A stretch of DNA of 64,000 bases from Granulicella mallensis MP5ACTX8 (GTDB taxonomy: Bacteria; Acidobacteriota; Terriglobia; Terriglobales; Acidobacteriaceae): NCBI RefSeq assembly GCF_000178955.2, contig NC_016631.1, positions 1,426,001-1,490,000 on the forward strand. The letters run 5' to 3'. How positions within the stretch are numbered: position 1 is the stretch's first letter; each line of letters opens with the position of its first letter. Below, piece by piece: positions 5,289-48,127 of the stretch. The notes beneath the pieces are model-generated. The model saw nothing but the letters and a program-made list of their open reading frames with translations. It was not told the DNA's origin and searched no databases. A program made the translations under genes and the position numbers.

Positions 5289-7088
5289 ATGACGCAGGCA
5301 ATCAGCGAAGAGTACGAGAGACGGCGGGCAGCATCAGCGGGCGAGTATGCCCGCGAGACAGAAAAAGGCGCGAGGTTCACCCTTTTTGCCTTCGTTGCCC
5401 TGGTGTTCTGCGCGTATTTCCTATGGAGCGCCATTCGTACGAGCGGAAGTCTTTGGCTGGTGGCAGCGGCCGCAGGGTTTTGCTCGGTGGCAACGGTTCT
5501 TTCGCTGCGTACGAGAAGGTCTTCAGAACGCGCATCCCGCCTTTCGGCGTTGTATGAGGAGGGGATGGGACGTGTGAATGGGGAAGCGCCACAGTCTGGG
5601 TTTACCGGCGAGAGCTTCGCGGAGGCCGGGCATCTGTATGAGCGCGATCTCAATGTCCTGGGCAAGGATTCTCTGTTTGGCATGCTCGCGACCACGCGAA
5701 CGATGGTGGGACAGCGAGCCCTGGCGCGAATGCTGTTGCGCCCGGCAGAGGCTCATACCGTAAGGCAGCGGCAGGCTGCGGTGCAGGAGCTTGCTCCACA
5801 GCTCGATCTGCGGGAACGGGTGGCGCTGCTGGGTCGCTGGGCCTTTGAGGAGTTGCCCGCCGAGAGCTTTGAAGTCTGGCTGGACGCAGAACGCAGCAAC
5901 TTTCCGAGATGGGTGCGCAGCGTGCTCCTGTTGCTGACGTTTGCATGGGCTACGGCGATTGCGGCAGGCCTGATCGCGCACGTTGAGATTAGCTTTCTGG
6001 TACGAAATGTCGTGGCCCTGCTGGGACTGCAAAACGCGCTCTGTCTCTGGCTGCGGCCGAGGGTGCACCTTGAGCTTGAGGCGACGAAGAAACTGGGTAG
6101 CCAGATTGCCGTCCTTCGCGAGGGGCTGCGGCTGATGCGCAACTCGAACTTTGCGGCTGAGCGGCTGGTTGCGTTGCAGCGCGGCATCGAGGATGAGGAT
6201 CGCGCCCTGGCGCAGTTGCAGCGCCATCTGGTGCTGGTGGAGCAACGCGCTACGGATTGGTTCTATGTTCCCAGTCTGCTGATCGGTGCCGGTACGCATG
6301 CGGCGCTCTCACTCGACCGTTGGAAGCAGCGTTTCGCGGAGCCGATGCGGAACTGGCTCGATGCCTGGGCCGAGTTCGAGGCCTTGTTGGCGCTGGCGAC
6401 GTATACGGCCGAGCATGCGGAGAATGTCTATCCCGAGGTTGTGGACGAGGGGCAGACGAAGACCGCGCTCTTCGAGGCGGAGGCCATGACGCATCCGTTG
6501 CTGCTACGTAGCGAGGCAGTGGCCAACGATGTATCGCTGGGGAACGGAGTGCAGTTTCTGCTCATCTCCGGCTCGAACATGGCGGGCAAATCGACCCTGC
6601 TGCGAACCATCGGCGCGAACGCGGTGCTCGCGCTTGCGGGGGTTCCTGTGCCGGTAAAAAGGATGAAGCTATCCGTAGTTCACCTGGGTGCTTCACTAGC
6701 TCTTACGGACTCGCTGGCGGAAGGGAAGTCGAAGTTCCTGGCCGAGGTGGAACGCCTTCGCGATGTGCTCGCGCTGGCCAGGGCGAATCCTGCGTCGAGC
6801 CTGTTTCTGATCGACGAGATCTTCAGCGGAACGAACTCACTGGACCGCCGGGCGGCGGCTAAGGCTGTGCTGCGTGGGCTGGTTGCCACGGGAGCTGTGG
6901 GAGCGCTCTCCACGCACGATCTTGCGCTGGCGGAACTGGCAGAGAAGCCGGAGCTGCACGGAAGCAACGTGCACATGGCCAGTCCCGATGAAGCCGATCC
7001 TCTGGGCTTCGACTACCTGCTCAAGCCAGGGATCAATCGTACGACCAACGCGCTGGCGATCGTGCGATTACTCGGGCTGGACAGCTAA
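5289..7088 (+). CDS. Membrane-anchored MutS-like ATPase (MutS domain V protein)
   Basis: A 599-residue protein whose C-terminal third is a MutS-type ATPase: Walker A SGSNMAGKST near residue 426, Walker B SLFLIDEIFSGTNS near residue 505, and the downstream STHDL histidine loop. No mismatch-recognition domain I precedes it. Instead the N-terminus has two hydrophobic segments (about residues 30-49 and 54-73), and another hydrophobic stretch spans 211-255, so the protein is probably membrane-bound. A helical lever-like region (about 80-200 and 260-400) connects them. It belongs to the MutS-related group outside classical MutS1/MutS2. Its role is unknown; canonical mismatch repair is unlikely without domain I. 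It is divergent from the M13 peptidase. Confidence 0.85.
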   Translation: MTQAISEEYERRRAASAGEYARETEKGARFTLFAFVALVFCAYFLWSAIRTSGSLWLVAAAAGFCSVATVLSLRTRRSSERASRLSALYEEGMGRVNGEAPQSGFTGESFAEAGHLYERDLNVLGKDSLFGMLATTRTMVGQRALARMLLRPAEAHTVRQRQAAVQELAPQLDLRERVALLGRWAFEELPAESFEVWLDAERSNFPRWVRSVLLLLTFAWATAIAAGLIAHVEISFLVRNVVALLGLQNALCLWLRPRVHLELEATKKLGSQIAVLREGLRLMRNSNFAAERLVALQRGIEDEDRALAQLQRHLVLVEQRATDWFYVPSLLIGAGTHAALSLDRWKQRFAEPMRNWLDAWAEFEALLALATYTAEHAENVYPEVVDEGQTKTALFEAEAMTHPLLLRSEAVANDVSLGNGVQFLLISGSNMAGKSTLLRTIGANAVLALAGVPVPVKRMKLSVVHLGASLALTDSLAEGKSKFLAEVERLRDVLALARANPASSLFLIDEIFSGTNSLDRRAAAKAVLRGLVATGAVGALSTHDLALAELAEKPELHGSNVHMASPDEADPLGFDYLLKPGINRTTNALAIVRLLGLDS

Positions 7089-34952: not shown

Positions 34953-35085
34953 TGTGTCTAAAGACTCCTTTGGTTCAATCGGATGCCCCCAAGAGGGTAT
35001 TCCGTTCGGATGTTTCGGTAAAGCGTTCAGGATTCGGGAACAGCCCAGGGGGCGGATTTTAGCGAAAGTCTCGTCGTCCCTTAGG

Positions 35086-36189
35086 TTAACTCATCTGGAA
35101 GTTGATCTTGACGACACCTTCCCAGTCGACCGGATTTCCCGAGGCGTCCTTGGCAGGCGTGAAACGTGTGTTCTGAGCAGCTTGCAGGGCGGATTCATCG
35201 AGTCCGTGACCCAGACCGCTGGTCACGCCCAGAACCTGTACCGCTCCTGAAGCTGTAACGCGGATACGTACGGAGACCGTGCCTTCCAGGTGTATGGACT
35301 TGGCCTCGGCGGTATAGACCGGGGTGGGCTTATAGGTGACTTTCGGGGGGGAGGCAGCCGTTGCGGTACGAAGTTGGGAGGTAGTTGCGGCTGGTGGTGT
35401 TGCTGCCGTTTGCAACTGTACCTGCCGTGGCGAGTTCGCGTAATTCGTTGAATTCAAAGGTCCGTTGCTGCCCGGAGTGCCGAGCCTTACGCCTTTGACC
35501 TCGCGCGATCCGTTGTCCCGGCCATTGAGGTTGGTGCAGTTCGGGCAGCCGGAACCGAGGTTGACCGAGGTCGCACGGGGACCGCTGCCGGTGTTGGAGG
35601 CATTCATGCCCGGTGCGCCCTGATTCCCCAGGTTCACCTGGGATACCGCAGGACCCGTCGTCGGTTTCAAAGGATTATCGGGCTGACCCAGGCGGACAGG
35701 CGTGGGATGCACATCGTTATTGGGAATATGGGCCGGCGCGGCGGCGGCGAGATTCACCTTGACCGGCGCGGGCGGCGGTGTAATGGCCTTCGGCGGAGCC
35801 GGCTGCGTGACCACAGGCTTCGGTATCGGCACAGGGATCGGCTTTACCTCGGGAACCTTCTCCGGAGGAGGTGGAGGAACGATCTTGGGCGGATGCAGAA
35901 CCTCCCTCGGCGTGGGGATCGGCTTCGGAGGAGGGGGCGGTGGCGGCTTGGGAACCGGTGCGGTCACGGGCGGCGGCGGGGGAAGCGTGAGTACCGCAAT
36001 CTGCTTAGCCACGGTAGGATTGGTCTTCACTATGTAGCCGAGGATCACCACAACAACGGCAAGGACGACATTGATGATGATCGAGGTAATTGCCGCACTT
36101 TTGCTGCGCTTGCCATCGTCAAGAACGCCGAAGTGGCTAAAGCTGATGTTCTTCGGGTTCGGGTCGTTGCTGCGAAGCGGCTGGGCCAT
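35086..36189 (-). CDS. TonB-family energy transducer
   Basis: 367 residues from ATG 36189. The N-terminus is a cytoplasmic arm then one membrane anchor (SAAITSIIINVVLAVVVVILGYIV, residues about 33-56). A long periplasmic proline/lysine region follows (PPPPPVTAPVPKPPPPPPPK and VPEVKPIPVPIPKPV). The C-terminal TonB domain starts at YTAEAKSIHLEGTVSVRIRV and ends GVVKINFQMS. It should couple the proton motive force to TonB-dependent receptors. No exbBD or receptor is in the window. A Gly/Asn/Ser linker (NLGNQGAPGMNASNTGSGPR) is unusual between the proline region and the domain. Confidence 0.9.
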   Translation of the reverse strand: MAQPLRSNDPNPKNISFSHFGVLDDGKRSKSAAITSIIINVVLAVVVVILGYIVKTNPTVAKQIAVLTLPPPPPVTAPVPKPPPPPPPKPIPTPREVLHPPKIVPPPPPEKVPEVKPIPVPIPKPVVTQPAPPKAITPPPAPVKVNLAAAAPAHIPNNDVHPTPVRLGQPDNPLKPTTGPAVSQVNLGNQGAPGMNASNTGSGPRATSVNLGSGCPNCTNLNGRDNGSREVKGVRLGTPGSNGPLNSTNYANSPRQVQLQTAATPPAATTSQLRTATAASPPKVTYKPTPVYTAEAKSIHLEGTVSVRIRVTASGAVQVLGVTSGLGHGLDESALQAAQNTRFTPAKDASGNPVDWEGVVKINFQMS

Positions 36190-43004: not shown

Positions 43005-44405
43005 ATGGCAAAAGGATTTTCAAAGAAGGATCTGGTCCTGCTCGGGCCAGGATTGGCGGCTCTGGCGCTCGGAGCGGTGTTGCAGCTTCCTCATGTACAT
43101 GTGCCGCACGACGTTGCGCTGGGAATGCGTTGGCTCGGTGTAGTCTTGCTGGCGGCATTTGCTGTGCAACGGCGAAGTCTTACGCCCTGGATCTTTGTGG
43201 CGATGGTCGCCGGAGCTGAACTCGGCTTCGATGCTCCGCACTTCGCTGTGGGCCTGCGTGTGTTTTCCGATATCTTTCTACGGCTCATCAAGACCATCGT
43301 CGCTCCGTTGATCCTTGCGACGCTGGTGGTCGGCATTGCGGGACATGGCGACCTGAAGAGCGTTGGCCGCATGGGCATCAAGGCATTGGTGTACTTCGAA
43401 GTCGTTACCACACTGGCGCTGGGGATTGGGCTGCTGGCGATCAACATCACCCGGGCCGGTGTAGGGTTATCGATGTCAGCCGCAACGAAGGCAGTGCAGG
43501 TCGTGAGCGCACCGCCTCCCACGCACTGGGATGATTTTCTACTCCATGTTTTTCCTGAGAACATTGCCAAGAGCATTGCCGAAGGACAGATCCTGCAGGT
43601 TGCGGTGTTCGCTGTCTTCTTCGGCATTGCGCTGGCGACGTTGAGCGAAGCCAAGCGCGGGCCTGTGCTGCGGCTGTGCGAGAGCCTCAGCGAGGTGATG
43701 TTTCGCTTCACGAATGTAGTGATGTACTTTGCTCCGATCGGCGTGGGCGCGGCGATGGCGTATACCGTCGGCAACATGGGGCTGGGCGTACTGGTGAATC
43801 TCGGCAAACTATTGCTGACGCTCTACGGCGCGCTGGCTATGTTCGGTGTGCTGGTATTGCTTCCCGCCGCAATGCTCTTCAAGGTGCCGATTGCGAACTT
43901 CATCGCCGCAGTCGCCGAGCCGGCCACGATTGCGTTTGCGACCGCAACCAGCGAGGCCGCTTTGCCGCGTGCGATGGAGCAGATGGAGGCGCTCGGAGTT
44001 CCGCGACGCATCGTGGCATTTGTCATTCCGGCAGGTTATAGCTTCAACCTCGATGGCTCGACGTTATATCTCGCCGTGGCGAGTATCTTCGTCGCGCAGG
44101 CGGCGGGTATCTCCATGTCGATAGGTCAGCAACTACTGATGATGGTAACGCTGGTACTGACAAGCAAAGGTGTTGCGGGAGTTCCGCGAGCGACATTAGT
44201 CGTGTTGCTCGCGACGGCCTCGACGTTTCATCTGCCGGTCGAACCGATCTTTGTGATTCTTGGCATCGACGCATTGATGGATATGGCGCGAACGATGGTT
44301 AATGTCGTGGGTAACTGTCTAGCTAGTGTTGTGGTGGCGAAGTGGGAGGGTGTGTTCGGTACGGAGCTGCTGGATGAGGTAGTGCTGGAAGGAATAGAGG
44401 CGTAG
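43005..44405 (+). CDS. Dicarboxylate/amino-acid:cation symporter (DAACS family)
   Basis: A 466-residue inner-membrane transporter with eight predicted helices. Signatures are DIFLRLIKTIVAPLILATLV, the serine-rich re-entrant region TIAFATATSEAALPRAMEQM (HP1), SFNLDGSTLYLAVASIFVAQ (TM7) and STFHLPVEPIFVILGIDALMD (HP2/TM8). These identify a GltP/DctA-type Na+ or H+ coupled carrier of C4-dicarboxylates or glutamate/aspartate. The TATSEAALP reading is closer to GltP/GltT than DctA, but specificity cannot be fixed. Monocistronic by context. Confidence 0.93.
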   Translation: MAKGFSKKDLVLLGPGLAALALGAVLQLPHVHVPHDVALGMRWLGVVLLAAFAVQRRSLTPWIFVAMVAGAELGFDAPHFAVGLRVFSDIFLRLIKTIVAPLILATLVVGIAGHGDLKSVGRMGIKALVYFEVVTTLALGIGLLAINITRAGVGLSMSAATKAVQVVSAPPPTHWDDFLLHVFPENIAKSIAEGQILQVAVFAVFFGIALATLSEAKRGPVLRLCESLSEVMFRFTNVVMYFAPIGVGAAMAYTVGNMGLGVLVNLGKLLLTLYGALAMFGVLVLLPAAMLFKVPIANFIAAVAEPATIAFATATSEAALPRAMEQMEALGVPRRIVAFVIPAGYSFNLDGSTLYLAVASIFVAQAAGISMSIGQQLLMMVTLVLTSKGVAGVPRATLVVLLATASTFHLPVEPIFVILGIDALMDMARTMVNVVGNCLASVVVAKWEGVFGTELLDEVVLEGIEA

Positions 44406-44549: not shown

Positions 44550-45920
44550 ATGCCTGTTAATCGCAGAAACTTCTTACGTGGAATGGCCGGCGCAGCGTCT
44601 GCCGCGGCGCTGGCCGGCACCTTGAACGACTCCGCCAAGGCCCAGACCATTGGCTTGCCTTCGCCTGAAGCTTCGCAGATCGAACACATCATTGTCGTCA
44701 TGATGGAGAATCGCAGCTTCGACCACCTGCTCGGATGGCTGCCCGGCGCTAACGGCAAACAGGCCGGTCTCTCCTTCGTCGACAGCTTCGGCGAGTCCCA
44801 CCCCACCACGCAACTCACTACCTACGTCGGCTGCGCGCATCCTGACCCCGACCACTCCTACGCTGGAGGCCGGAGCGAGGTTAACGGCGGTCTGATGGAC
44901 GGATGGCTCCAAACTACCACCAACGACACCTTCTCGATCGGCTACTACACCGAAGAGCAGCTGTCGTTCTTTGGCGCAATGGCCCGCAACTTCACCACGT
45001 GTGACAACTACTTCGCCTCCATCCTTGGGCCCACCTTCCCCAATCGCATCTTCCAGCTTGCAGGACAGACCGATCGCCTCTCGAACACGCTCGATATCTC
45101 CACGTTGCCGACGATCTTCGATACGCTTGCTGCTGCAGGCGTCAGTTCCAAATACTACTTCGGCAATGTTCCCTTTCTCGCACTCTGGGGAACCAAATAT
45201 CTCCCTATCTCCGAGATCTTCGCGCAGTTTCTGCTTGACGCAGCCGCAGGCACTCTGCCCGCCGTCTCCTTCGTCGACCCCAGCTTCACCATTCTTGACG
45301 ACGGCGAGGGCAACGACGACCATCCGCATGCCGACCTCCGCGCCGGGGAAGCTTTCATGGGTAAGATCTACCGCGCCGTCACCTCCGGACCGAAGTGGGG
45401 CAATACCGTCGTCATCTTCAACCGCGACGAGTGGGGTGGCTTTTACGACACGGTTCCTCCCACTCGCGTCAACGCTCCAAACAGTGTGGATACCGATCTG
45501 GTCGATGGCAAAGCGCTTCTCGGCTGCCGCGTTCCTGTAGTCGTCGTCTCGCCTTTTACCCAGGGCGCTCCCGCAACCCCGCGAATTGATTCGAACCTCT
45601 ACGACCACACCTCTGTTCTGAAGCTGATCGAATGGCGCTACAATCTGCCACCGCTCACCAGCCGTGATGCGTCCAACGACATCGCTAACCTTGCCCTTGC
45701 GCTCAACTTCACCAGCTCTGGTAAAACTGTTGCTCCCGCTCTGCCGATCATCGTTCCACCCATCCCAACTCCCTGCGGACTCTTCGAGCTTGCCAGCGAG
45801 ATCGACAATGAGAGCTACGACTTCTTCAAGCTCCTCATCTCCGACCTCGTCGACGACTGGCGGTCGGCCGGCAAATCTGTCCCCGCCGCTTCGTCGAGCT
45901 CTACGCTTCGGTCCCTGTAG
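44550..45920 (+). CDS. Tat-exported phosphoesterase (phospholipase C / AcpA family)
   Basis: A 456-residue exported enzyme. The N-terminus NRRNFLRGMAGAASAAALAG is a twin-arginine signal. The mature part has IEHIIVVMMENRSFDHLLGW (metal ligands E/N and the nucleophilic region), a central DPSFTILDDGEGNDDHPHAD and NTVVIFNRDEWGGFYDTVPP, the conserved metal-binding blocks of the PF04185 family. Members hydrolyse phospholipids or phosphomonoesters; which is not clear. It is followed by a terminator at 45943. Codon use looks more C-ending than in neighbouring genes, which may hint at transfer. Confidence 0.9.
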   Translation: MPVNRRNFLRGMAGAASAAALAGTLNDSAKAQTIGLPSPEASQIEHIIVVMMENRSFDHLLGWLPGANGKQAGLSFVDSFGESHPTTQLTTYVGCAHPDPDHSYAGGRSEVNGGLMDGWLQTTTNDTFSIGYYTEEQLSFFGAMARNFTTCDNYFASILGPTFPNRIFQLAGQTDRLSNTLDISTLPTIFDTLAAAGVSSKYYFGNVPFLALWGTKYLPISEIFAQFLLDAAAGTLPAVSFVDPSFTILDDGEGNDDHPHADLRAGEAFMGKIYRAVTSGPKWGNTVVIFNRDEWGGFYDTVPPTRVNAPNSVDTDLVDGKALLGCRVPVVVVSPFTQGAPATPRIDSNLYDHTSVLKLIEWRYNLPPLTSRDASNDIANLALALNFTSSGKTVAPALPIIVPPIPTPCGLFELASEIDNESYDFFKLLISDLVDDWRSAGKSVPAASSSSTLRSL

Positions 45921-45942
45921 GAAATTCATCGAATTCGCAAGA

Positions 45943-45980
45943 TTAAGGGCACGGGTTTATCCCGTGCCCTTAACTTTTGT
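45943..45980 (+). terminator. Rho-independent terminator after the phosphoesterase gene
   Basis: TTAAGGGCACGGG-TTTA-TCCCGTGCCCTTAA stem followed by CTTTTG. Confidence 0.88.
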
Positions 45981-46012
45981 GTCTCAGCAAGCTGTTTGAC
46001 GGGTGTGGCCCG

Positions 46013-46071
46013 CACGTACTCGGAATTATTTGGGTGCTCCATTCATGACAGCACTATCGTCATGAGTGGGG
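46013..46071. repeat. Family D repeat, left copy
   Basis: About 59 bp beginning CACGTACTCGGAATTATTTG and including ATTCATGACAGCACTATCGT then CATGAGTGGGG. It is about 80 % identical to the copy at 46724-46786, in the same orientation. The pair brackets the immunity-like gene and Rhs remnant. Confidence 0.75.
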
Positions 46072-46106
46072 TGGCGAGGGAGAAGGAGTGCCAATGTATG
46101 GGCATC

Positions 46107-46153
46107 CGTCGCTGCCCACCCATGCGCAAAGACCGCGCATGAATGGGGCACCC
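46107..46153. repeat. Hairpin repeat next to family D
   Basis: CCCACCCATGCGC and GCGCATGAATGGGG arms around AAAGACC form an imperfect hairpin just upstream of the immunity-like gene. It looks like another dispersed intergenic element. Confidence 0.55.
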
Positions 46154-46214
46154 GTCAAGGGTTATTCAGTGCCGCTTTATGATCCACTTCCCTAAGAAGT
46201 CTGCGAGGCGAGAA

Positions 46215-46520
46215 ATGAAGTTTCAGCTGGTTTTACAATTTGCAGCGACGGAAATAAGTCAATTCGACGAGCTTGTGGCTTTGGAGGAGAAGCTGATTCA
46301 AAATCTCCCGTCGACCTCCTGGGTCGATGGTCACGATTTTGGGGCGGGTGAGTTCAACATCTTCATTTTGACAGATCAACCAAAGGAAGCTTTTGATGCT
46401 GCTCGAAAGCTGATAGAGGGCCCCTTTCAGGAACAGGTTCGAGCTGGTTATCGCGAACGGGGCAAAGACGGTTATGCCGTTTTGTGGCCGGAGTATCTTC
46501 AAGAGTTTCGAGTGGCGTAG
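46215..46520 (+). CDS. Small protein, probable orphan immunity protein of an Rhs module
   Basis: 101 residues from ATG 46215, which follows GAGGCGAGAA; the frame opens at 46143 but the upstream part lies in repeats. The sequence (FQLVLQFAATEISQFDELVA, DGHDFGAGEFNIFILTDQPK, EAFDAARKLIEGPFQEQVRA, DGYAVLWPEYLQEF) is a compact alpha/beta protein like the small immunity-type proteins coded beside polymorphic toxins. The stop is 7 bp before an Rhs core remnant that resumes mid-motif. This is the displaced core-end arrangement of orphan Rhs modules, where an immunity gene precedes a re-grafted core end. Function by context. Confidence 0.6.
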   Translation: MKFQLVLQFAATEISQFDELVALEEKLIQNLPSTSWVDGHDFGAGEFNIFILTDQPKEAFDAARKLIEGPFQEQVRAGYRERGKDGYAVLWPEYLQEFRVA

Positions 46521-46526
46521 AAGTGT

Positions 46527-46685
46527 AGATCACTTTCTTCCGGCAAAGAACGGGATGCAGAATCGGGGCTGGATTATTTCGAGGCTAAGTACTATGGATC
46601 GAGCATGGGCCGTTGGATGTCGCCGGATTGGGCGAGTAAACCGGAGGCTGTGCAGTACTCGGATCTTGTAATCCACAGTCGCTAA
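46527..46685 (+). pseudogene. Rhs core-end remnant with a new short tip
   Basis: The frame starts without a start codon just after a TAG and reads SSGKERDAESGLDYFEAKYY then GSSMGRWMSPDWASKPEAVQ and ends YSDLVIHSR-stop. SGKERDAESGLDYF.A.YYGSSMGRWMSPDWA is the conserved last block of the RHS repeat-associated core; here one core end with only about 15 tip residues survives, and the rest of the Rhs protein is absent. It is a fragment of a polymorphic toxin locus. Confidence 0.85.
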
Positions 46686-46723
46686 ACCTATACGGATATG
46701 TAACAACGACCACGGATGGCCTC

Positions 46724-46786
46724 CGCGTACCCGGAATCATTTAGGTGCTCGATTTATGACAACACCATCGTCATGAATCGAGCACC
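46724..46786. repeat. Family D repeat, right copy
   Basis: About 63 bp beginning GCGTACCCGGAATCATTTAG. Internally GGTGCTCGATTTATGAC and GTCATGAATCGAGCACC form a 17-bp hairpin with one mismatch around AACACCATC. A direct-repeat partner of 46013-46071. Confidence 0.78.
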
Positions 46787-46834
46787 CGGCCTTTTAGCGG
46801 CTCGCTGATTGAAGAGGGGACACCAAAGTCTCAA

Positions 46835-46888
46835 CGAAAAAAAACTACCTGCAAATAGTCCCTCGTCAGAGGAGCTATTTGCAGGTAA
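46835..46888 (-). terminator. Terminator of the esterase gene
   Basis: TACCTGCAAATAG and CTATTTGCAGGTA arms (13 bp) plus inner pairing. On the minus strand the stem is followed by AGTTTTTTTTCG, a strong U-run. Confidence 0.88.
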
Positions 46889-46936
46889 CTAAGTATTAAA
46901 TCTTAGGTTCGGCGTAGTCCCCCAAATGCTCAATTA

Positions 46937-48076
46937 CTACCAGCAGTTCGGATAAGGTTGTGCGGTTTGGGTTGCGGGGCTCGTATTCTGGTTCGCGCTG
47001 GTGTTTGTGTTGGTGTTTGGGCTTGTGCTCTTGGGGTCGGGGTTCCCGGCGCGAGGAGGCTGCGGGACCGTGGGTGTTGGGCATGGGGTGGGGGTTGGTG
47101 TGCCGGTCGAGGGGCGGTCCGGGCCGTGGCGGGGGGCCAGGGAGGGGATTACGCCGAGAGACCGCAGCCAGATGGTGGCGAGGATCGTCCAGTGCTCCTC
47201 GGGCTTTCCGGGAGGATGCACACCGAAGCCGTGGCCTCCGGTGGAGTAGAGGTGCATCTCTACAGGGACCTTCGCCTCCTTGAGCGCGCGGTAGTAGATC
47301 AGTGAGTTTTCTACGTGCACGCCGTCGTCTTCAGCCTGCAGGAGAAATGTCGGCGGAGTTTTGGCGACAGGCACCAGAGCGGGATCGATTTCAGTAAGGG
47401 CTGGTGGGGTTGCTACGTAGGCCGGATAGATGACGAGGCTGAAGTTGGGCCGTGCATCTATCTTCGTGTCGACATCCGCCGCGGCGGGCGTGCTTTCTAC
47501 ATGGGTGTCGTCCCAGTGGGCGCCGAGTGTAACGGCGAGATGCGCTCCGGCGGAGAAGCCCACTACTCCGATGCGGACGGGGTCGATGTGCCAGTCGGAG
47601 GCGTGGGCGCGGGTCAGGCGCATGGCCTGCTGGGCGTCTTCGAGATCGGCGGGGTTGTCAGGATAGCGGCCCTTCTCCGGGACGCGGTACTTCACCAGCA
47701 GGCAGGTCATGCCGATGGAGTTGAGCCAGTCGCAGGTATCGGTGCCTTCCCCATTCCAGGAGAGACGGGCATAGCCGCCGCCAGGAAAGACGAGCGCTGC
47801 CGCGCCTGTGTTCTTCACTCCCGAGGGTGGATAGACGGTGATCGTCGGGTTCGTGACGTTCGTGAGCCGCTCGGTGCGGCGCCCATCGATCAGGGCGTCT
47901 TTATCGGTGGTGACGTCGCGTTCAGGATCGGTGGTCTGAGCGGGTTCGGGCGTTGCGTGAGGCCATAAGGGAAGAACGGTCTGCTGGGCGAACGCTGAGG
48001 GAGCGGCTGCTAGACCACAGATCGTGAGGCTGCAGGCTGTGAGGCTATAGGCGAAGGCGCGCACGAAAATCTTCAT
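46937..48076 (-). CDS. Secreted alpha/beta-hydrolase esterase (acetylxylan esterase-like)
   Basis: About 379 residues with a signal peptide (MKIFVRAFAYSLTACSLTIC ... SAFAQ). The alpha/beta-hydrolase core has an oxyanion region LVFPGGGYARLSWNGEGT, nucleophile elbow VGFSAGAHLAVTLGAH, the acid residue in LLQAEDDGVHVENSLIY and the catalytic histidine in STGGHGFGVHPPG. It resembles exported carbohydrate-esterase/BD-FAE-like hydrolases acting on acetylated polysaccharides. The C-terminal 55 residues are a Pro/Thr/Asn/Gln linker-like tail ending NCW with no domain attached, perhaps a lost or surface-anchoring extension. The start could also be ATG 48082. Confidence 0.85.
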   Translation of the reverse strand: MKIFVRAFAYSLTACSLTICGLAAAPSAFAQQTVLPLWPHATPEPAQTTDPERDVTTDKDALIDGRRTERLTNVTNPTITVYPPSGVKNTGAAALVFPGGGYARLSWNGEGTDTCDWLNSIGMTCLLVKYRVPEKGRYPDNPADLEDAQQAMRLTRAHASDWHIDPVRIGVVGFSAGAHLAVTLGAHWDDTHVESTPAAADVDTKIDARPNFSLVIYPAYVATPPALTEIDPALVPVAKTPPTFLLQAEDDGVHVENSLIYYRALKEAKVPVEMHLYSTGGHGFGVHPPGKPEEHWTILATIWLRSLGVIPSLAPRHGPDRPSTGTPTPTPCPTPTVPQPPRAGNPDPKSTSPNTNTNTSANQNTSPATQTAQPYPNCW

Positions 48077-48127
48077 GTGCAAAATAGTACGTCTTTGAGA
48101 CGTGATGAGGAAACGGTTTCACACAAT

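What the first reader, a model, noticed from the sequence alone, without database searches (positions are those of the whole stretch)
46013..46786. Repeat-bounded Rhs remnant with an immunity-like gene
An immunity-type gene ends 7 bp before a piece of the Rhs core that resumes mid-motif, with only a short new tip. Direct repeats (about 80 % identical, hairpin-forming) sit on both sides. This is what a displaced Rhs toxin-tip module looks like and suggests past toxin exchange at this site.
Basis: partly seen in the sequence, partly recalled or inferred. Interest (0 to 1): 0.65.

Follow-up and report, generated by a model that had tools for sequence, protein, structure and literature searches.

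The report
Leftover Rhs immunity-cassette remnant
This looks like the decayed leftover of a bacterial toxin-and-antidote cassette in which an antidote-like gene is still intact while the toxin parts are gone, an ordinary trace of competition between bacteria.

Summary
A 101-aa gene (46215-46520) stops 21 bp before the GKERD motif (46542) of a decayed piece of Rhs core (NCBIfam TIGR03696 positions 20-53, E 1.9e-7), and 83%-identical hairpin repeats lie on both sides. There is no 'short new tip', only core that shifts frame near 46669.

Best reading: a relic of an orphan rhs-CT/rhsI array, namely the immunity gene of one cassette (toxin lost) and the start of the next (tip lost). In the nearest relative found (G523) the same neighbourhood carries a full-length Rhs gene with two orphan cassettes, on the other side of the phosphoesterase, and this exact spot is empty (24 bp instead of 924 bp). 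The small protein has no named family. Its homologue on a Sinomonas plasmid sits directly behind a full Rhs/PT-HINT gene, which supports an immunity role; six of the nine family loci read show no Rhs core nearby. The hairpins belong to a family that also occurs at ordinary intergenic sites in seven other genomes of the genus, so they are weak evidence for cassette exchange.

Orphan cassettes of the genus mostly begin at the same motif (TGKERD), but a control shows that core conservation itself begins there, so a fixed joining site is not shown. New member of a known kind.

The parts
46006..46153 (+). Hairpin repeat, left copy: 60-nt direct repeat plus a second, partly complementary stem (46115-46153)
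   Evidence: same hairpin family elsewhere in the genus
46154..46195 (+). Possible last 13 codons of the lost toxin tip (VKGYSVPLYDPLP, then stop); conjecture
   Evidence: translation only; a faint likeness by eye to the C-terminus KGLLPPPY of the Sinomonas tip; not tested statistically
46215..46520 (+). Intact 101-aa immunity-like gene; no Pfam/NCBIfam family; model suggests a ferredoxin-like fold
46530..46716 (+). Decayed stub of a further orphan Rhs cassette: core end from about GKERD, frameshift near 46669, no toxin tip
46717..46787 (+). Hairpin repeat, right copy
46003..46926 (.). Stretch (924 bp) in place of which the nearest relative found, G523, has 24 bp
44392..44401 (.). Junction between transporter and phosphoesterase where G523 carries 10.9 kb with an Rhs array

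Best explanation
The 0.9-kb stretch is the decayed remainder of an orphan rhs-CT/rhsI cassette array. Shown: an intact immunity-like gene is followed at once by a piece of Rhs core that lacks everything before about GKERD, has lost frame and has no tip; the stretch is absent at this spot in the nearest relative found, which carries a full-length Rhs gene with two orphan cassettes in the same neighbourhood. Inferred: an Rhs gene once exchanged tips here or close by; older tip/immunity pairs were displaced downstream; the array was later deleted except for this piece, and hairpin elements of a dispersed family landed at or replaced its ends. Inferred: the surviving gene is kept (or only recently released from selection) as an orphan immunity protein that would neutralise an Rhs toxin delivered by neighbours; the Sinomonas pair suggests that this toxin is a small tip behind a PT-HINT domain, perhaps a nuclease.
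For: Core match: TIGR03696 E 1.9e-7, custom HMM E 6e-21, second half in another frame E 1.8e-5. DNA 80-81% identical to the core ends of three full Rhs genes of the same genome (ORFs) and 80% to the G523 main gene. Like most orphan cassettes of relatives the piece has no recognisable core before GKERD. In L145 (G539) an ORF that follows a tip-bearing cassette likewise runs straight into a GKERD stub. Empty spot and neighbouring array in G523. Immunity: a homologue 36% identical lies directly behind a 2174-aa Rhs/PT-HINT protein on Sinomonas plasmid pSA01. Eleven residues are invariant in the eight other family members; the window copy keeps 11 of 11. Occurrence is sporadic: 4 of 28 genomes of the genus, the window's own included.
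Against: Of nine family loci read, only Sinomonas is directly next to a full-length Rhs gene; in G524 the nearest core is 5.7 kb away; six loci show no Rhs core in the flanks held. The HMM used there misses the Sinomonas core that NCBIfam finds, so the two planctomycete negatives are weak. No Imm family matches (homologues). No sigma-70-like promoter found at 45900-46950 (crude scan, about 1 expected by chance). The remnant lies on the other side of the phosphoesterase from the G523 array, and G523 has no homologue of the small gene, so common origin with that array is not shown. That the piece starts at GKERD is weak evidence by itself, because full Rhs genes of different species also align in DNA only from about there (control).
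Confidence: 0.78

Rival explanations
1. The small gene is not an immunity gene but an accessory ferredoxin-fold protein of unrelated function that merely lies beside an Rhs relic.
For: Six of nine family loci show no Rhs core nearby; the AlphaFold model is ferredoxin-like and its weak best matches are monooxygenase-like and shell proteins (mean pLDDT 69, no match with E <= 0.001).
Against: A homologue directly follows a full Rhs gene in Sinomonas, and here the gene abuts an Rhs core stub where an immunity gene would be expected. Immunity genes without their toxin are known (PMC5361080, PMC10539506: passages seen).
Confidence: 0.2
2. The two hairpin repeats and what lies between them are one mobile unit inserted between phosphoesterase and hydrolase, the Rhs pieces being passengers.
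For: The stretch is absent in G523 and the left repeat starts within a few bases of the left end of the difference. The two repeats and a copy about 0.5 kb upstream of another Rhs gene are the only perfect matches of the pattern in the genome, but the pattern was made from the two window copies. IS200-like transposase fragments lie near the Rhs loci of G000 and G523.
Against: The hairpin family occurs singly at ordinary intergenic sites of relatives. The right repeat does not sit at the end of the difference: 139 bp remain beyond it. A search with the transposase of the L007 locus found no match in the window.
Confidence: 0.1
3. A variant of the best explanation: the relic is the 3' end of the very array still present in G523, moved across the phosphoesterase by recombination in the lineage.
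For: G000 lacks the 10.9-kb array at the transporter side but has Rhs pieces beyond the phosphoesterase. Of the three cores in that neighbourhood the G523 main gene matches best (80%).
Against: The immunity gene has no homologue in the G523 genome, and no shared junction sequence was found linking the two places.
Confidence: 0.25

Closest known systems
Orphan rhs-CT/rhsI modules ('silent cassettes') of Rhs loci, e.g. Dickeya and Yersinia (PMC3150448; passages seen)
   Same: 3' piece of rhs core without the N-terminal part, immunity-type small ORF close by; tandem cassettes in relatives
   Different: Here the toxin tips are lost and the core is frameshifted; the nearest of the three full Rhs genes found in this chromosome is about 0.6 Mb away
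Orphan immunity genes left by successive displacement of effectors, Vibrio cholerae T6SS clusters (PMC5361080; passages seen)
   Same: Immunity gene kept while its toxin is gone
   Different: A single gene beside decayed Rhs DNA; no secretion cluster was looked for around it
Orphan Rhs immunity protein of Serratia Db10 (PMC10539506; passages seen)
   Same: Immunity gene retained without the cognate Rhs tip
   Different: No functional test here; unnamed protein family; not next to a full rhs gene
REP-like dispersed hairpins and IS200-like (Y1) transposases; the names REP and RAYT are recalled, not from a call
   Same: Intergenic hairpins; Y1-type transposase fragments near Rhs loci of this genome
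   Different: No transposase match at the window site; mobilisation of these hairpins by it not tested

Membership tests
Orphan rhs-CT/rhsI cassette | Carries the 3' end of the Rhs-associated core domain | tested here: met
   TIGR03696 positions 20-53, E 1.9e-7, 31.5 bits against cut-off 32.5; HMM E 6e-21
Orphan rhs-CT/rhsI cassette | Starts inside the core, lacking the N-terminal Rhs protein | tested here: met
   Open frame only 6 codons upstream of SGKERD; no core before it
Orphan rhs-CT/rhsI cassette | Variable toxin tip follows the core end | tested here: not met
   Frame lost near 46669 and hairpin repeat from 46717; it is therefore called a relic, not a cassette
Orphan rhs-CT/rhsI cassette | Lies downstream of a full rhs gene | tested here: not met
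   Nearest full gene found in G000 about 0.6 Mb away; in G523 an array lies in the same neighbourhood
Rhs immunity protein (RhsI) | Encoded directly downstream of an Rhs toxin | tested here: inconclusive
   True of 1 of 9 family loci read (Sinomonas); at the window the toxin is gone
Rhs immunity protein (RhsI) | Member of a described Imm family | tested here: not met
   Pfam best E 0.23 to an unrelated family; NCBIfam none at E up to 10; two homologues touch DUF695 at E 0.11-0.17, below cut-off
Rhs immunity protein (RhsI) | Neutralises its cognate toxin | not testable with these tools
   Needs co-expression
Dispersed REP-like hairpin | Hairpin repeated at unrelated intergenic sites | tested here: met
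   16 places in 8 of 28 genomes with at most one mismatch; 0 of the 13 loci outside G000 has an Rhs or transposase match in the flanks held. Copy number per genome is low with this pattern (1 to 3)
Dispersed REP-like hairpin | Mobilised by a Y1-type transposase recognising it | not testable with these tools
   Y1_Tnp fragment behind the L007 Rhs gene (E 2.8e-8); no link to the hairpin shown

The most novel reading that the evidence does not exclude
In this genus orphan Rhs cassettes share a standard head, a common short leader (or an upstream immunity gene) joined to the core at one place (DNA ACCGGCAAAGAA, protein TGKERD). New toxin tips would then enter Rhs genes at a preferred site, by a route more specific than general homology, and the window relic would be one spent product of that route. 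The evidence does not exclude this, but it does not require it: core conservation itself begins at that motif.
Probability: 0.1. Interest if true: 0.65.

Novelty: new member of a known kind. Interest (0 to 1): 0.33.

Why it matters
It gives an unnamed immunity-type family one firm toxin pairing (Rhs with PT-HINT and a small C-terminal tip in Sinomonas), so its function becomes directly testable. It also documents tip displacement and decay in a lineage for which a full-text library search found little (8 papers hold Acidobacteria, Rhs and toxin, listing seen; that the genome is acidobacterial is my inference). The leader shared by some orphan cassettes gives a handle on the open question of how Rhs tips are exchanged.

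Tried and rejected
Rejected: the repeats as Rhs-specific boundary elements. The first genome-wide pattern gave only Rhs-linked perfect copies, but it was built from the window copies; the genus search showed the family at ordinary sites. Rejected: a genuine new tip after the core, since the frame is lost. Weakened: a fixed joining codon for orphan cassettes; full Rhs genes of different species also align in DNA only from about GKERD, and orphan-type pieces with more core exist (L144, L147; L120). Weakened: a leader common to nine orphans; left out one at a time, five of nine were found again at E < 1e-4, two at about 0.07, two not. Tried without result: Rfam, PADLOC (best E 0.087), phages, viral contigs, PDB sequences, Pfam for the Sinomonas tip. 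The likeness of that tip to GIY-YIG/URI nucleases is my reading by eye, from recall, not a profile result. A DNA search with the right hairpin found only itself, not even the left copy, so that search is insensitive; an early guess at the hairpin consensus found nothing. Foldseek gave only weak, generic ferredoxin-like matches. Paper searches (0 papers; listing seen; one paper of it read in passages) added PMC10539506 only.

Full report
What is there. The window lies in a single-contig genome of 6.24 Mb (G000). Between a phosphoesterase gene (44550-45920, Pfam PF04185) and a convergent hydrolase gene (46937-48082, minus strand; the name is my reading of the sequence) lie, in order: a hairpin repeat (46006-46153), an intact 101-codon gene (46215-46520), a piece of Rhs core (about 46530-46716) and a second hairpin repeat (46717-46787). 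The core piece reads GKERDAESGLDYFEAKYYGSSMGRWMSPDWASKPEAVQYSDL and continues in another frame as NPQSLNLYGYV. NCBIfam TIGR03696 matches at E 1.9e-7, one bit under its curated cut-off; an HMM built from the genome's own three full Rhs proteins matches at E 6e-21; the part after the frameshift matches at E 1.8e-5. Pfam gave nothing for the short piece. There is no toxin tip after it.

The genome's own Rhs genes. The core piece is 80-81% identical in DNA to the core ends of three full Rhs genes of the chromosome, at about 0.78, 2.07 and 5.39 Mb (ORFs of 1893, 2113 and 2116 aa). One has a tip with DUF2380 / SitA6-like similarity and a 224-aa ORF at its end.

The site in relatives. G523, the nearest genome found, shares the phosphoesterase (97%) and the hydrolase (98%). 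There 24 bp stand in place of the 924 bp between window positions 46002 and 46927. On the other side of the phosphoesterase G523 carries 10.9 kb that G000 lacks. It holds a full Rhs gene (2071-codon frame), its 110-aa follower, two orphan cassettes with 217- and 253-aa followers (the tip of the second split over two frames), and a piece of a transposase like the one behind the L007 Rhs gene, beside hairpins of another sequence. In 11 of the 28 other hydrolase loci read, the transporter lies next to the hydrolase, at most about 1.1 kb away, with no phosphoesterase match between them; in the other 17 no transporter was seen in the 1.5-kb flanks. So the phosphoesterase/Rhs block looks like an addition in the G000-G523 lineage (inference). 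Whether the window stretch was lost in G523 or gained in G000 is not decided.

The small gene. It matches no Pfam, NCBIfam or PADLOC family at a useful level. Homologues are rare and scattered: 3 of 150 genomes of the family, 3 of 396 of the phylum and 4 of 28 of the genus, each count including G000; two planctomycete contigs; one plasmid; no phage record and no viral contig. The plasmid case is the informative one. In Sinomonas atrocyanea pSA01 the homologue lies directly behind a 2174-aa RHS protein with a PT-HINT domain (E 2.6e-13) and an 82-aa unassigned tip; the record calls the gene 'ABC transporter'. Eleven residues are invariant in the eight other members and the window copy keeps all 11, which suggests that the gene was under selection until recently. 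Against a simple immunity reading, six of nine loci show no Rhs core nearby and in a seventh (G524) the nearest core is 5.7 kb off. The HMM used there misses the Sinomonas core, so its negatives outside this genus are weak, and one planctomycete contig begins only 315 bp upstream of the gene. The predicted fold is beta-alpha-beta-beta-alpha-beta with modest confidence (mean pLDDT 69) and only generic weak matches.

The repeats. They are real (83% over 60 nt) and improbable by chance in the window. In G000 a pattern taken from them has three perfect copies, two here and one about 0.5 kb upstream of the 2.07-Mb Rhs gene, plus one with two mismatches at 5.85 Mb with no Rhs or transposase match beside it. 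With at most one mismatch the hairpin occurs at 13 further places in seven other genomes of the genus; none of these 13 loci has an Rhs or transposase match in the flanks held, which are up to 1.5 kb and shorter at contig ends. They are therefore best seen as members of a dispersed intergenic family and say little about cassette exchange. Directly after the left copy comes a 13-codon open stretch with a stop 19 bp ahead of the immunity gene (VKGYSVPLYDPLP); it may be the end of the lost toxin, but that is conjecture.

Where orphan cassettes begin. A survey of the Rhs core in the genus gave 42 matches in 17 of 28 genomes; 17 of the 42 begin at query residue 36 or later. I fetched the surroundings of those 17, so the sample is chosen for late starts. 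In 12 stretches (the window's, G523's and ten fetched) 16 core pieces have the motif without a long frame upstream. One lies at a contig end and cannot be judged; two keep more core upstream; the other 13 of 15, the window's included, show no recognisable core before TGKERD (my reading of the upstream sequences). A further piece with more core and a short frame, in G526, was not among them (L120). The pattern requires the motif, so I tested separately with an HMM of the core's second half, which would also see later starts: 24 of 25 hits have GKERD upstream and the exception is a divergent core near a contig end. The control is sobering: in DNA comparisons full Rhs genes of different species also align only from within about 12 bases of TGKERD, except the closely related G000/G523 genes. 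The orphans' breaks thus lie in or near the variable linker before GKERD, but a single joining point is not shown. Of nine orphan upstream sequences that looked alike, five are recognised by a model of the other eight at E < 1e-4, two at about 0.07 and two not; the best pair is 84% identical over 55 bp; no leader hit fell in the window or, below E 0.45, in the three main genes of G000. In G539 an ORF behind a tip-bearing cassette ends on the ACCGGCAAAGAA that starts the next stub, a layout like that in the window.

Mechanism and standing. Tip displacement with retention of older pairs is an established model for orphan Rhs and effector modules (PMC3150448, PMC5361080, PMC10539506; passages seen). 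The window fits it as a decayed case. As it lacks a tip and a parent gene, I call it a relic rather than a member. The phylum, the terms REP and RAYT and the nuclease guess for the Sinomonas tip are recalled or inferred; PMC3482391 lists URI nuclease tips with several Imm families (passages seen), but no profile linked our proteins to them.

Noticed in passing
L139, L140, L141, L142, L145 and G523:C12: Several orphan Rhs cassettes of the genus share a 50-70-bp leader just before the core; five of nine pass a leave-one-out test.
   Followed up: partly
L007 10144-10560, L008 5783-6018, L009 9866-10002, G523:C12 (g523 34979-35203): Pieces of one transposase family (Y1_Tnp by Pfam in L007, the others by tblastn with it) lie near the three full Rhs genes of G000 and the G523 array.
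   Followed up: partly
L017 6741-6986: 82-aa tip of the Sinomonas Rhs protein with no Pfam, NCBIfam or PDB sequence match; by eye GIY-YIG-like.
   Followed up: partly
L017 7061-7303: The public record annotates the immunity-family gene as 'ABC transporter' and starts it at 7061, while the part conserved in homologues begins about 60 bp upstream.
   Followed up: no
L089 7685-7996 and 13075-15890: In G524 a family member lies some 5 kb from an Rhs array with an orphan cassette on the opposite strand.
   Followed up: no
window 46846-46887: Inverted repeat (19-nt arms, 89% complementary, 4-nt loop) right of the second hairpin copy, inside the stretch that G523 lacks.
   Followed up: no
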